From: Rhodopila sp.
GTDB taxonomy: Bacteria > Pseudomonadota > Alphaproteobacteria > Acetobacterales > Acetobacteraceae
Assembly: GCA_025355085.1 (NCBI GenBank)
Contig: JANXLQ010000287.1
Coordinates: 1-49,468, forward strand
Direction: 5' to 3'
DNA: 49,468 bases
Numbering within the stretch: position 1 is the first letter of the stretch; every line of letters starts with the position of its first letter. The position numbers were made by a program, and so were the translations under genes. The notes under the pieces were generated by a model. That model saw only the letters and a list, made by a program, of their open reading frames with translations, was not told the origin of the DNA and did not search any database. Shown here piece after piece: positions 33,557 through 36,833 of this stretch.

Positions 33557-33806
33557 GGCTAGGTGACCGATTTCGGGCAGGCTCGAAGGACGCGCATGAC
33601 CTGTAACCCGGTCTGTTGGTGAAAGCAGAGCCACATGATCGATTGGATGGGTGGAAGTCAATATATCGGGGATTAGCGGCAGATGGCGGCGGCCCTTCGA
33701 CCCGCCACGGCTGCAATACGCCATAGGACGAGCATTTTGAGATTTAGACTCGACTCATGGTTGCAAAAAAGTGAATAGAAAAAACTCGTGATGGAGGTCC
33801 GATTCT

Positions 33807-34511
33807 TTGCTCCGATCCAAACTCGACAAAATTGCGCCGCAACACGTCCTTGAGCGGCAAACAGCACCGAACGGCTTTGTAAATCGGGAGGCTTTAGACG
33901 CCATCGGGATCGGTAGTGAGAAATTGGCCCAGGCCATTCTGGCGACCTACCGCTTATTGGACCGAATCGATGAAACGCTAACTTCTGACGGAGTTGAGCC
34001 ACTTTGCCAGGTCGTCGAACTCGCTAACCTCAGTTCGATGATCGGGAATATCTTCGGAGCGGAACTAGCAAAATGTAGCGTCGGTCTCTATCGACGAAAT
34101 GGGCCACACAAATTTCCCGACCTGTTATCGGTGGGTAAGGGATCCATAGAAGGCGGCATCGAGATCAAGATGGCCTTGGGTCGAAATAAGCCTAAGGGCC
34201 ATCTCGTCAAGCCAGGCCATTATCTCACATGTAGGTATGTCCTGATTGACGAAGTTGGAATGATAATTGCGGAGAAGGCCGACAGGCCCAAGGCACACAA
34301 GCCTATTTTTTGGGAGATTCGCACGGGGCCTCTGACCGAGCAGCACTTCAATGTGAGCAATACAGCCGGTGACAGCGGCAAGACAGCCGTTGTCAATGAG
34401 GAAGGGATGAAGTCGCTTCGCGTCGTTTATGTCGATTTGGCTATGGTGCCTGGCGCTCAGCGGGGTGCAAACTGGGAAGCCTACAAAGCCCTGGTTGCCG
34501 CGGGTATCTAA
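33807..34511 (+). CDS. putative type II restriction endonuclease (PD-(D/E)xK)
   Basis: 234 residues from a TTG start at 33807 with GGAGG nine bases upstream; no in-frame ATG is better placed. I do not recognise a named family, but residues 104-121 read PDLL...IEIK, that is Pro104-Asp105, 13 residues, Glu119-Ile-Lys121, the PD-(D/E)xK nuclease core. The N-terminal half is helical (EKLAQAILATYRLLDRIDET), and the C-terminal half may hold target recognition. It is tail-to-tail with a cytosine methyltransferase; the stop codons overlap (34508-34511). Base composition is lower in GC than its neighbours, in line with transfer. The restriction role is inferred from motif and partner. Confidence 0.7.
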   Translation: MLRSKLDKIAPQHVLERQTAPNGFVNREALDAIGIGSEKLAQAILATYRLLDRIDETLTSDGVEPLCQVVELANLSSMIGNIFGAELAKCSVGLYRRNGPHKFPDLLSVGKGSIEGGIEIKMALGRNKPKGHLVKPGHYLTCRYVLIDEVGMIIAEKADRPKAHKPIFWEIRTGPLTEQHFNVSNTAGDSGKTAVVNEEGMKSLRVVYVDLAMVPGAQRGANWEAYKALVAAGI

Positions 34512-35908
34512 TCTGCATCGAGCAGGGCCTCCGCGATGCATCGCCCCAAAATCGGCGGAACGGCGTTCCCGATTTGCTTCACAATTTGGCTTCGCGTCCC
34601 CCGAAAATTGAAGGTATCAGAAAAACCTTGTAGTCTGGCACCTTCCCTGGGCGTTAACGCTCGGTCCTGATAAGGATGAATGCAGCGGTTGCTGGCCGGG
34701 TGAACAAAATTCACCGTGATTGTATTCGCTGGCTCATTCGGAGCCAAGCGGCTGTAGCACGAGCTAAACCCGGAAGTTACCATGCCGGGCGGCAATGCGT
34801 TAATATTGTCACCAGCATGCCGAATAATATTAAGCATTTCCGGAGAATGAGCCGTGCCATCATGCATCGTCAGAATTTTAGCCCCTGCCCGAATCAGTTC
34901 TTGATAGCGTGTTTCGGGAATATCGAGGTATTGATCTGTCGTTTGCCCCGCTGAAACCGGCGGGAGGTTTCCGATAGCCTCCAACAAAGTCACTGCCGGC
35001 TCAGTTGCCTCCAGAAGGCCTAACTCCGGCGCCAGCAGGAGACGAGACGAGCCAGCCATCGAGCGCCGACCATGATTGTGGGTTGGAACGGGCCATTCGA
35101 ACGTCTTACCTTCCAAACTCCCAACGATTATCAATCGTTCTCGGCGTTGAGGCAGACCATGGAATGCCGCATTCATAACCCGGGCAGATACCTTGTACCC
35201 TATTCCCTCAAATGCACCCTGCAGCATCTCAACGGTTTTTCCGCCATTGTGTGTGAGGAGCCCCACGACATTCTCAAAAACAAGCCACTTGGGCCGTGCT
35301 GCAGCCACGACGCGGCAGAACTCCTCTGCCAGGTTGTTTCTAAGGTCACCCCATTCCACGTTCCTAAAAGGACGTATCGATGAAAAACCTTGGCAGGGAG
35401 GGCCGCCAATAACGGCAAATGGGCGCTCATTTTCGCCAAGGAGAGTATCTGTGGTAATATTGCGGATATCGCCACCGTATGCATTGGCCGCGCCGTGGTT
35501 GGCAGTAAATGTTTCCAGGCGATCACCCAGCAAATCCAACCCAGCGACTACCTCGAACTCACCGGTAGCCTCAAATCCGGCACTGAACCCGCCAACCCCG
35601 CAAAATAAATCCCAGACTGGCCGCAAGCCCATATCATGATCGCGGGTCCGCCGAATGAGACGCCCCTCAGCCGACATTGAAGTTACGTAGCCTTCGCCCG
35701 AAATCGGAGCCATCGCCGCTTTAGGGAGAACGCCGAGGACCCGCTCAAGCGACCGGGTTTGGTCGGCCGACGGAACAAGTAGTCCGCGCTCGATACGCAT
35801 TATATAATTCAACGACAGCCCCGCAGCCTCAGCCAAAACTGCCTGAGGCATCTGCAAAGCCTTCCGGCGGGAGCGGACATCCACAAAAAGAGGGGATAAT
35901 TCATTCAA
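34508..35908 (-). CDS. DNA (cytosine-5-)-methyltransferase with N-terminal HTH domain
   Basis: 466 residues from TTG 35908, which has GGAG eight bases upstream; a TTG at 35932 would add eight residues without a ribosome binding site. Residues about 12-57 form an XRE helix-turn-helix (RRKALQMPQAVLAEAAGLSL, NYIMRIERG). The catalytic domain has motif I DLFCGVGGFSAGF (100-112), motif IV GGPPCQGFS with catalytic Cys172, motif VI FENV (211-214), motif VIII QRRER, motif IX region LTPREGARLQGF, and motif X QIGNAVPP. It protects host DNA by methylating cytosine C5; the HTH probably represses its own or the nuclease promoter, as in M.SsoII/M.EcoRII-type enzymes. Target sequence unknown. Confidence 0.93.
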   Translation of the reverse strand: MNELSPLFVDVRSRRKALQMPQAVLAEAAGLSLNYIMRIERGLLVPSADQTRSLERVLGVLPKAAMAPISGEGYVTSMSAEGRLIRRTRDHDMGLRPVWDLFCGVGGFSAGFEATGEFEVVAGLDLLGDRLETFTANHGAANAYGGDIRNITTDTLLGENERPFAVIGGPPCQGFSSIRPFRNVEWGDLRNNLAEEFCRVVAAARPKWLVFENVVGLLTHNGGKTVEMLQGAFEGIGYKVSARVMNAAFHGLPQRRERLIIVGSLEGKTFEWPVPTHNHGRRSMAGSSRLLLAPELGLLEATEPAVTLLEAIGNLPPVSAGQTTDQYLDIPETRYQELIRAGAKILTMHDGTAHSPEMLNIIRHAGDNINALPPGMVTSGFSSCYSRLAPNEPANTITVNFVHPASNRCIHPYQDRALTPREGARLQGFSDTFNFRGTRSQIVKQIGNAVPPILGRCIAEALLDAD

Positions 35909-35932
35909 AGACTTTACTCCGTTTCCAGTCAA

Positions 35933-36216
35933 GTCTCATTACATTCATATCCCCAGTCATCAACTTTGCATACATTGGTATTGATGATCACCTATTATGG
36001 CACTTACTATCACATCGTGCGTGTCTTTTTTCACTGGGCACCTATTCTCCGGTATCGTTGACATTAGCCCAGCCTTCAAGCTTTTCGTCCATCACACGAG
36101 CCGTTGCGCCCTTAGTGAGACCAATCCCTTGTGCATGTCCTGACATTCTATAACGATTCGCACTCACTGATGATATCCACACGCTATGGGGAGATGGCCG
36201 GACGCGGTGATTTCTT
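35933..36216. other. gap upstream of the methyltransferase
   Basis: 35933-36040 is AT-rich and is the likely promoter region of the methyltransferase (ATTGGTATTGATGATCACC near 35974-35992 is a possible operator core). 36041-36216 is open on the minus strand, but the encoded sequence matches nothing I know. Confidence 0.35.
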
Positions 36217-36455
36217 ACCCCTTTGCCACGTTCCAGAAAACCGACATAGCCCCCCTTGAGACCCCAACAGGTTTGAGCGCCACGCCGCTGGCGGCAGATA
36301 CTGCCTAAACGGAATAAACGGCACCGCCTCGAACGCTCGGGACTGGATTTCGGCGTCCAGATGATGGCATTCCCCAGGTCGGTGCTGTTGATCCATGTGG
36401 TGCGCATGCCCTCCAGTTCCGGATCAGAGGGCAGCCAAACCACGCGTCCGGCCCG
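36217..36455 (-). pseudogene. C-terminal fragment of a family 5 extracellular solute-binding protein
   Basis: On the minus strand, one frame reads SDPELEGMRTTWINSTDL (about 36385-36440) and the next frame continues HLDAEIQSRAFEAVPFIPFR, QYLPPAAWRSNLLGSQGG. The combined sequence is the C-terminal end of ABC peptide/nickel-type binding proteins (pattern I...AF..VP.IP..QY..P.A.R..L.G). The switch of frame near 36385 marks at least one frameshift. The front 450 or so residues of such a protein are missing. The fragment is non-functional and abuts a broken htrA on the other strand. Confidence 0.6.
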
Positions 36456-36833
36456 AGGCGGCAGACCATTGTTATTCCGGCCGCGACGGTGGCCCGTGTC
36501 GTCGATTCCCTGCTGACAGAAGGTCGCATCGCCAAGGGATGGCTGGGAATTGGTCTGCAACCGGTGATGATTCCTGACAGTTTTCGTCAGACCGCCGAAC
36601 GAGACAGCTGCCTGATGGTGGTTGGGCTGGTTGGCGCGGGCCCCGCTGAGACGGCCGGTGTACTGCCCGGAGACATCGTGCTGGACATTGATGGAACGCC
36701 AGCCGGCCGGCCCCGCGTGCTGACTGCCCTACTGGGTCTGGATCGGATCGGTCAAATTGTGACTCTGCGGCTACTGCGGGCGGACGCCGTGCAGACAATC
36801 GCGGTCACGATCGCCGCTCGTCCACCGGCATGA
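36456..36833 (+). pseudogene. C-terminal (PDZ) fragment of an HtrA/DegP-type serine protease
   Basis: The frame reads TIVIPAATVARVVDSLLTEG, then RIAKGWLGIGLQPV, GLVGAGPAETAGVLPGDIVL and DIDGTPAGRPRVLTALLGLD. This is the end of a trypsin-like protease followed by a complete PDZ domain (about 36520-36830). The protease domain with its His-Asp-Ser triad is missing; upstream sequence in this frame is unrelated. A GTG at 36489 could start a free PDZ peptide, but there is no good ribosome binding site. The stop overlaps the start of the next frame (ATGA at 36830-36833), as in intact protease/regulator pairs. Confidence 0.7.

What the first reader, a model, noticed from the sequence alone, without database searches (positions are those of the whole stretch)
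33807..35932. Apparently uncharacterised tail-to-tail restriction-modification pair with overlapping stop codons
Seen: a 234-residue protein with PD-X13-EIK meets an HTH-C5 methyltransferase end to end, and the TAA of one and the TAG of the other share the four bases 34508-34511. I do not recognise the nuclease family. Known: C5 methyltransferases with N-terminal HTH domains often regulate their own operons. Inference: a mobile type II system inserted upstream of coaX, where birA often lies in relatives. The overlapping 3' ends would produce complementary transcript tails and might add antisense control between the two genes.
Basis: partly seen in the sequence, partly recalled or inferred. Interest (0 to 1): 0.6.

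Follow-up and report, generated by a model that had tools for sequence, protein, structure and literature searches.

The report
Compact inserted restriction-modification gene pair
Two genes set tail to tail look like an ordinary bacterial defence kit, a DNA-cutting enzyme from a sparsely described family plus the DNA-marking enzyme that protects the cell and may also control its own gene, acquired from elsewhere; solid but not a surprise.

Summary
In detail: a 234-aa ORF (+, 33807-34511) and a 474-aa HTH + C5-methyltransferase ORF (-, 34508-35932) converge and overlap by 4 nt. The small protein has no Pfam, NCBIfam or PDB sequence match, but is very probably a PD-(D/E)XK restriction endonuclease: weak PADLOC REase match; P104, D105, E119, K121 invariant in 8 aligned sequences; second AlphaFold model (pLDDT 84) closest to NaeI (Z 9.4). 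In 17 of 18 related loci a DNA methyltransferase gene, or part of one, lies within 0.7 kb; the 18th keeps a methyltransferase HTH remnant. The pair is an approximately 2.6-kb low-GC insert beside coaX, not found there in 17 genus relatives. birA was found at coaX only in two relatives from other families. An HTH-C5 methyltransferase tail to tail with a REase, stops overlapping, is already in print (PMC3346939). Antisense control is untested. Of 19 family loci 15 are convergent and 7 of these overlap, even where the methyltransferase is of another class; in C5 members the HTH sits on the methyltransferase in convergent pairs and on the REase in two divergent ones. Verdict: new member of a known kind.

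The parts
33807..34511 (+). Type II restriction endonuclease, 234 aa, PD-X13-EIK, TTG start with GGAGG 9 nt upstream
34508..35932 (-). C5-cytosine DNA methyltransferase, 474 aa (or 466 aa from a second TTG at 35908), with N-terminal HTH
35723..35878 (-). HTH (HTH_31/HTH_3) domain of the methyltransferase, residues 19-70
34508..34511 (.). 4-nt overlap of the two convergent ORFs (TAA on +, TAG on -)
33662..36220 (.). Approximate extent of the inserted DNA between the conserved coaX leader and the 3' remnant of a solute-binding-protein gene; GC 53% against 61% for the window
   Evidence: 33662-36213 measured for GC
35957..35987 (-). Inverted repeat TCATCAA-N17-TTGATGA upstream of the methyltransferase; possible operator, not significant
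   Evidence: 11.7% of simulated sequences reach it

Best explanation
A horizontally acquired type IIP-like restriction-modification module. The 234-aa protein cuts unmethylated DNA at a specific site using a PD-(D/E)XK active site (D105, E119, K121) on an EcoRV/NaeI-like (beta-branch) fold. The convergent methyltransferase puts 5-methylcytosine in the same site and so protects the host. Its N-terminal HTH most likely binds its own promoter region and represses methyltransferase transcription once enough protein has been made, as reported for M.Ecl18kI, M.SsoII and M.EcoRII. Shown by computation: gene identity, conserved active-site residues, fold, linkage to methyltransferases, insertion. Inferred: enzymatic activity, shared target site, autorepression. 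Unknown: the recognition sequence.
For: PADLOC REase_II PDLC03564 matches the query at E 2.3e-5 and 10 of 10 family members scanned (E 7e-101 to 4.5e-3); it matches 2 of 5 (L004 6.8e-4; the R.SnaBI-labelled ORF 1.7e-96). P104, D105, E119 and K121 are invariant in 8 aligned sequences, two of them only 22-23% identical to ours. Second fold: pLDDT 84.3, pTM 0.86; best VIA match NaeI, Z 9.4 (149 residues, 3.7 A); 49 of the 50 listed entries are restriction endonucleases (12 different enzymes, with 23 EcoRV and 11 HincII entries) and the other a Holliday-junction resolvase. Linkage: of 18 loci with a relative, 17 have a DNA MTase gene or part of one within 0.7 kb and 1 an MTase HTH remnant; this includes all 5 weak profile hits, found by REase profile alone. 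MTase: PF00145 E 2.5e-57, HTH above gathering score, catalytic blocks intact. The C-terminal third, where I place the target-recognition domain from memory of C5 MTases, is strongly conserved in 7 aligned MTases. Foreign origin: GC3 0.55-0.59 against 0.72-0.82 for five neighbours; neither gene found in 30 other coaX-flank loci.
Against: No PDB sequence match. Foldseek alone gives no PDB match at E <= 0.001 (best 1.6e-2); only 3 chains reach Z 8, and the tool warns that lower Z may mean only a common arrangement. The good model depends on adding two distant relatives, and one of its five replicas scored only 45.8. Catalytic geometry was not measured. PADLOC scores of the close relatives are weak, and three of five members were not listed. 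Nothing shows expression or activity; relatives L003, L006, L007 and L008 are interrupted, truncated or frameshifted. No operator reaches significance.
Confidence: 0.88

Rival explanations
1. The convergent overlapping 3' ends are themselves regulatory: read-through of either gene makes antisense RNA against the other, coupling endonuclease output inversely to methyltransferase output.
For: No room for a terminator between the two stops (sequence). Convergent arrangement in 15 of 19 family loci, ORFs overlapping in 7 of the 15, including two pairs (L030, L058) whose methyltransferase is of the amino type rather than C5. Antisense control of R-M genes exists (EcoRI, Eco29kI; PMC3874152, passages).
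Against: The known antisense cases use reverse promoters inside the REase gene, not 3' overlaps. Terminator-like and promoter-like sites are no more frequent than in shuffles. Seven other convergent loci have gaps of 0 to 677 nt and one is a remnant, so overlap is not required. Compaction explains it as well. The loci are related, not independent.
Confidence: 0.15
2. The 234-aa protein is an inactivated or non-nuclease partner and the methyltransferase acts as a solitary regulator.
For: Decayed copies exist: L006 fragment, L007 truncated, L008 frameshifted, L003 interrupted.
Against: Here both ORFs are full length, with invariant active-site residues and a Shine-Dalgarno match.
Confidence: 0.07
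3. Vsr-like, homing or other PD-(D/E)XK nuclease (for example a resolvase) that sits beside the methyltransferase by chance.
For: One Hjc resolvase appears among the 50 listed fold matches.
Against: Methyltransferase linkage in nearly all family loci held here; the best fold matches are type II REases; a separate Vsr gene is present beside the pair in L005, L007 and L034, so that role is filled by another protein there.
Confidence: 0.03

Closest known systems
pP62BP1 R-M1/R-M2 of Psychrobacter sp. DAB_AL62B (PMC3346939, section 18 read)
   Same: C5 MTase with N-terminal HTH_XRE placed tail to tail with a PD-(D/E)XK REase, termination codons overlapping
   Different: That REase is assigned to the LlaMI family, predicted CCNGG, with a 4-residue spacer between PD and (D/E)XK; ours has 13. 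The paper calls the overlapping tail-to-tail arrangement rather uncommon.
REase family PADLOC PDLC03564, with the R.SnaBI-labelled ORF of Streptococcus phage phi-SsuHCJ31_comEC
   Same: Shared region NLSxxxG ... PD ... (D/E)xK; beside a C5 MTase and mostly convergent
   Different: 22-23% identity in the 8-row alignment, 26-44% in short BLAST segments; a longer insert between PD and ExK; the MTases of three core members compared (SsuM, PsimM1, EcM) are of another C5 subfamily, 24-28% identical to ours. The SnaBI label is the depositor's and was not tested.
M.SsoII / M.Ecl18kI / M.EcoRII regulatory C5 methyltransferases (PMC12707154 section 11 read; PMC3978073 abstract in a listing)
   Same: N-terminal regulatory domain fused to a C5 methyltransferase, reported to regulate its own R-M genes
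   Different: Our pair is convergent, so the two genes cannot share a promoter region; any control of the REase would need a second binding site (inference).
C-REase fusions such as CR.NsoJS138I (PMC3850674, abstract and passages)
   Same: Relatives L002, L005 and L035 carry an HTH on the endonuclease, control-protein-like by PADLOC in L002 and L005
   Different: Those are PvuII orthologues; the window's HTH is on the methyltransferase, not on the endonuclease.
NaeI (PDB 1iaw, 1ev7)
   Same: Closest solved fold to the model, Z 9.4 over 149 residues
   Different: 8% identity; only residues 16-169 of a 304-residue chain align; a type IIE enzyme by PMC4081073 (passages).
NruI / Sbo13I (PMC2890505, passages)
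   Same: Predicted PD-X21-EVK or DD-X21-EVK REases next to oppositely transcribed MTase genes; a homologue is annotated as an HTH XRE protein
   Different: Amino-methyltransferase partners; I did not compare the sequences, so any relation to this family or to L030, L032, L033, L058 is untested.

Membership tests
Type II restriction-modification system | Separate REase and MTase genes side by side | tested here: met
   conserved in related loci
Type II restriction-modification system | REase cleaves and MTase methylates the same sequence | not testable with these tools
   needs enzymology or methylome
PD-(D/E)XK nuclease, beta (EcoRV/NaeI-like) branch | Conserved PD...(D/E)xK residues in homologues | tested here: met
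   P104, D105, E119, K121 invariant in 8 sequences
PD-(D/E)XK nuclease, beta (EcoRV/NaeI-like) branch | PD-(D/E)XK core fold | tested here: met
   49 of 50 listed VIA entries are type II REases of 12 kinds, best NaeI Z 9.4; the branch assignment rests on PMC4081073 (passages), which lists BglI, EcoRV, HincII, NaeI and PvuII as beta; most Z values lie below 8
REase family PDLC03564 (SnaBI-labelled) | Profile match over most of the length | tested here: not met
   matches residues 35-130 only, E 2.3e-5; relative of the family, not a core member
C5-cytosine DNA methyltransferase | PF00145 / TIGR00675 above cut-off, with catalytic PCQ and ENV motifs | tested here: met
   195.2 bits vs 22; 189.7 vs 100.65; motifs seen
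Regulatory (SsoII/EcoRII-type) C5 methyltransferase | N-terminal HTH domain | tested here: met
   HTH_31 30.9 bits vs cut-off 27, HTH_3 26.4 vs 23
Regulatory (SsoII/EcoRII-type) C5 methyltransferase | Operator in its own promoter | tested here: inconclusive
   one 7-bp inverted repeat, reached by 11.7% of 2000 simulated sequences; no repeat of 7 bp or more found upstream of the MTases of L004 or L034
LlaMI-type (CCNGG) system as in pP62BP1 | PD-X4-(D/E)XK spacer as described for that REase | tested here: not met
   spacer here is 13; no Pfam family matches the REase
Antisense-controlled R-M system (EcoRI, Eco29kI) | Reverse promoter or antisense RNA acting on REase mRNA | not tested
   only a consensus scan, at shuffle level; no transcript data

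The most novel reading that the evidence does not exclude
This REase family keeps a convergent, often 3'-overlapping gene pair even when the partner changes from a C5 to an amino (N4/N6) methyltransferase, and moves the HTH regulator between methyltransferase (convergent) and endonuclease (divergent). That would mean that gene orientation and the seat of the regulator co-evolve, with 3' overlap acting as a built-in antisense link between toxin-like and antitoxin-like genes.
Probability: 0.15. Interest if true: 0.55.

Novelty: new member of a known kind. Interest (0 to 1): 0.3.

Why it matters
It puts an endonuclease without a Pfam, NCBIfam or PDB sequence match among the PD-(D/E)XK restriction enzymes and points to a small, scattered family (by record titles: Rhodospirillaceae, Novosphingobium, Altererythrobacter, Deltaproteobacteria and Phycisphaerales assemblies, a Psychrobacter plasmid, a Streptococcus phage, viral contigs) that could be mined for a new cutting specificity. 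The family is also a natural series for asking how the place of a regulatory HTH and the gene orientation go together in R-M systems.

Tried and rejected
Led nowhere or rejected. (1) Pfam, NCBIfam and PDB sequence searches with the REase: nothing up to E 1; a profile of 4 sequences against PDB gave only chance-level hits, E >= 0.28. (2) First fold from 5 sequences: pLDDT 66.7, no useful match (SfiI only at Z 2.8, rank 18). (3) Recognition sequence: no REBASE is held; paper searches for SnaBI/BsaAI-type systems showed no paper on this family among the listed rows (15 of 22 and 15 of 104); a SnaBI-like TACGTA site would be only a guess from one depositor's label. (4) Terminal repeats or target duplications of the insert: only short repeats of a chance-like kind. 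(5) Operator inverted repeat: not significant. (6) birA as the displaced neighbour: not supported in this genus. (7) Promoter and terminator scan: at shuffle level. (8) viral-contig scans with the query REase, the query MTase and L035 gave no new relative; the profile scan gave L034 and L035, the SnaBI-labelled ORF gave L050 and L051. (9) The viral structure library gave 4 matches at E <= 0.001, best an unnamed 116-aa protein, 38% identical over 108 columns; not followed up.

Rows and selection. The 18 comparison loci were found with three kinds of query: our REase, its profile and the SnaBI-labelled ORF. Counts describe these loci, not an unbiased sample. L049 is L035 again and was not counted. 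Twenty plasmid records found with the L033 REase were not examined for neighbours and are in no count. Gene ends are open frames (L030 and L008), not verified genes. L003 was counted by its SnaBI-labelled REase, with the interrupted window-type copy just upstream. L005 has 677 nt and another open frame between the two genes. L006 and L007 are remnants. In one search, 31 of 40 genomes had a coaX match and only the best 20 loci were fetched.

Full report
What is there. The + strand ORF 33807-34511 (234 aa, TTG start, GGAGG 9 nt upstream) and the - strand ORF 34508-35932 (474 aa) are convergent and overlap by 4 nt. TAA occupies 34509-34511 and TAG, on the minus strand, 34510-34508; the two stop codons share two bases. 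The longer protein is a C5 methyltransferase (PF00145 195 bits against a cut-off of 22) with an N-terminal HTH above gathering score; its DLFCGVGG, PPCQGFSS, ENV, QRRER and GNAVPP blocks are present.

The small protein. It matches no Pfam, NCBIfam or PDB sequence up to E 1. PADLOC gives REase_II PDLC03564 at E 2.3e-5 over residues 35-130, and a helicase model at 0.054. The same REase model hits at E 1.7e-96 an ORF of a Streptococcus suis phage that its depositors call R.SnaBI, and it hits 10 of 10 further family members scanned (E 7e-101 to 4.5e-3). In one search it hit 2 of the 5 proteins given (L004 and the R.SnaBI-labelled ORF) and was not listed for L005, L002 or L007. A direct BLASTP of our protein with the R.SnaBI-labelled ORF gives E 4e-4 over NLSSMIGN...PDLL.

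Relatives and active site. Close relatives came from genome contigs (5 loci), one plasmid, one phage and viral contigs (2 loci); best segments are 40-66% identical. In the 8-row alignment A4, which includes two SnaBI-type sequences 22-23% identical to ours, twelve columns are invariant, among them P104, D105, E119 and K121.

Fold. A model from five close sequences was poor (pLDDT 66.7) and matched nothing useful. With the eight sequences the best model reached pLDDT 84.3 and pTM 0.86; the five scored 84.3, 82.7, 82.0, 80.8 and 45.8. Foldseek against PDB put NaeI and EcoRV first but without significance (best E 1.6e-2). VIA-align, which re-aligns chains that Foldseek preselects, gave NaeI Z 9.4 (149 residues, 3.7 A); SwaI, DpnI, SfiI, BglI, HincII and EcoRV follow at Z 5.5-6.7. 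Of the 50 listed entries 49 are restriction endonucleases, of 12 kinds with many EcoRV and HincII entries, and the other is Hjc, a Holliday-junction resolvase. Only 3 chains reach Z 8. BglI, EcoRV, HincII, NaeI and PvuII are named as the beta branch of PD...D/ExK REases in PMC4081073 (passages).

Linkage. I hold 18 other loci with a relative of this REase. In 17 of 18 a DNA methyltransferase gene, or in L007 and L008 a truncated or frameshifted one, lies within 0.7 kb; in L006 only the HTH part of a methyltransferase remains, 48% identical over 50 residues to that of L004. The five weakest loci (L030-L033, L058; E 8e-6 to 5e-4) are all the non-own matches of those three searches, found by REase profile alone, and all five have a methyltransferase alongside. 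In L030, L032, L033 and L058 it is of the DPPY amino type (PF01555 for L032 and L058; by motif for the other two), not C5. So the endonuclease family appears with more than one chemistry of protection.

Gene order. Of the 19 loci (window included) 15 are convergent and 4 divergent (L002, L007, L035, L036). In 7 of the 15 the ORFs overlap: window 4 nt, L004 20, L008 20 (broken genes), L030 15, L031 57, L037 11, L058 48. Seven others have gaps: L033 0, L034 5, L050 19, L051 52, L003 58, L032 92, L005 677; L006 is a remnant. Among loci with a C5 methyltransferase close to ours and an assessable N-terminus, convergent pairs carry the HTH on the methyltransferase (window, L004, L034, L005 by Pfam; L008 by sequence; L006 as a remnant), and the divergent pairs L002 and L035 carry it on the endonuclease, with none listed on the methyltransferase. 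L005 has both. In L036 none is listed on the close methyltransferase (Pfam) or on the two REases (PADLOC only), and a separate HTH gene is annotated nearby. Numbers are small and the loci are related.

Context. The coaX leader is conserved in relatives up to about 33661. From 36221 the window matches the 3' end of a solute-binding-protein gene (PF00496) that lies directly upstream of coaX in relative G014. In between lie about 2.6 kb of 53% GC, against 61% for the window, with GC3 0.55-0.59 in the two genes against 0.72-0.82 in five neighbours. Neither gene was found in any of 30 other coaX-flank loci scanned: 17 genus genomes with flanks up to 1.5 kb (two of these contigs end within 250 nt of coaX), 11 of the same genomes again with longer stretches, and 2 genomes of other families. 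At 36445-36453 the solute-binding-protein remnant meets a 3' remnant of an HtrA-like gene; in G014 about 4.5 kb with a pyridoxamine-oxidase-like gene, a GST, a trypsin-like protease and the 5' part of the HtrA-like gene lie between. So a deletion probably also happened there. In the closest relative, G010, other genes fill the interval and no solute-binding-protein match was seen, so the order of events is not resolved. birA was found beside coaX only in L027 and L028, from other families; in this genome the birA-like gene is on contig C34. The REase family is rare in the genomes searched: genus 2 of 33 (own, and one weak match), family 1 of 100 (own), class 3 of 385 and phylum 4 of 398 (own included, the rest weak; the samples overlap).

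How it works. Best reading: a mobile type II R-M module whose methyltransferase protects and, through its HTH, probably represses its own transcription. Methyltransferases with a fused regulatory domain are established: Ecl18kI, SsoII and EcoRII in PMC12707154 (section 11 read); PMC3346939 (section 18 read) cites M.ScrFI for DNA binding by such an HTH. Operator evidence here is weak: one inverted repeat 25-55 nt upstream of the first start, reached by 11.7% of simulated sequences. In three related loci (L005, L007, L034) a Vsr gene adjoins the pair, which fits 5-methylcytosine.

Precedent. [quoted passage not shown] C protein-REase fusions are described in PMC3850674 (abstract and passages). 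Convergent R-M systems such as AhdI are discussed in PMC5333194 (passages). [quoted passage not shown] Hence the layout is not new; the REase sequence family is thinly described. The rows listed by my six paper searches showed nothing on this family, but several lists were capped and REBASE was not available, so I do not claim that it is unnamed.

Verdict. Observation confirmed; interpretation partly supported. A new member of a known kind, interest 0.3. The boldest open reading is that gene orientation, 3' overlap and the seat of the regulator co-evolve in this family.

Noticed in passing
window 36221-36833: Fused gene remnants: 3' end of an SBP_bac_5 gene meets, at 36445-36453, the 3' (PDZ) part of an HtrA-like gene; about 4.5 kb present in relative G014 is missing.
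   Followed up: partly
L036:412-4474 (Peribacillus simplex plasmid pSHB26): Two related REases in tandem with overlapping ORFs, divergent from two C5 methyltransferases of different subfamilies; looks like a candidate heterodimeric REase for an asymmetric site (BbvCI-like, recalled).
   Followed up: no
L030, L032, L033, L058: Distant relatives of the REase paired tail to tail with amino (DPPY) methyltransferases, two with PF01555 confirmed; L058 is in another genome of the same genus.
   Followed up: partly
L005:4127-4573, L007:5388-5801, L034:3398-3898: Vsr mismatch endonuclease genes next to the R-M pair.
   Followed up: partly
window 34508-35932 (-): The stretch DPRN that follows the PCQ motif in all six aligned relatives reads DLRN here (DLRNNLAEE against DPRNNLGEE in L004 and L034); effect unknown.
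   Followed up: no
L003:4980-5529 (Streptococcus phage phi-SsuHCJ31_comEC): An interrupted copy of the window-type REase lies directly upstream of an intact SnaBI-labelled REase and its methyltransferase.
   Followed up: no
G000 contigs C89, C117, C21, C49: Four further PF00145 methyltransferase matches in the same genome; they would complicate reading the methylome.
   Followed up: no
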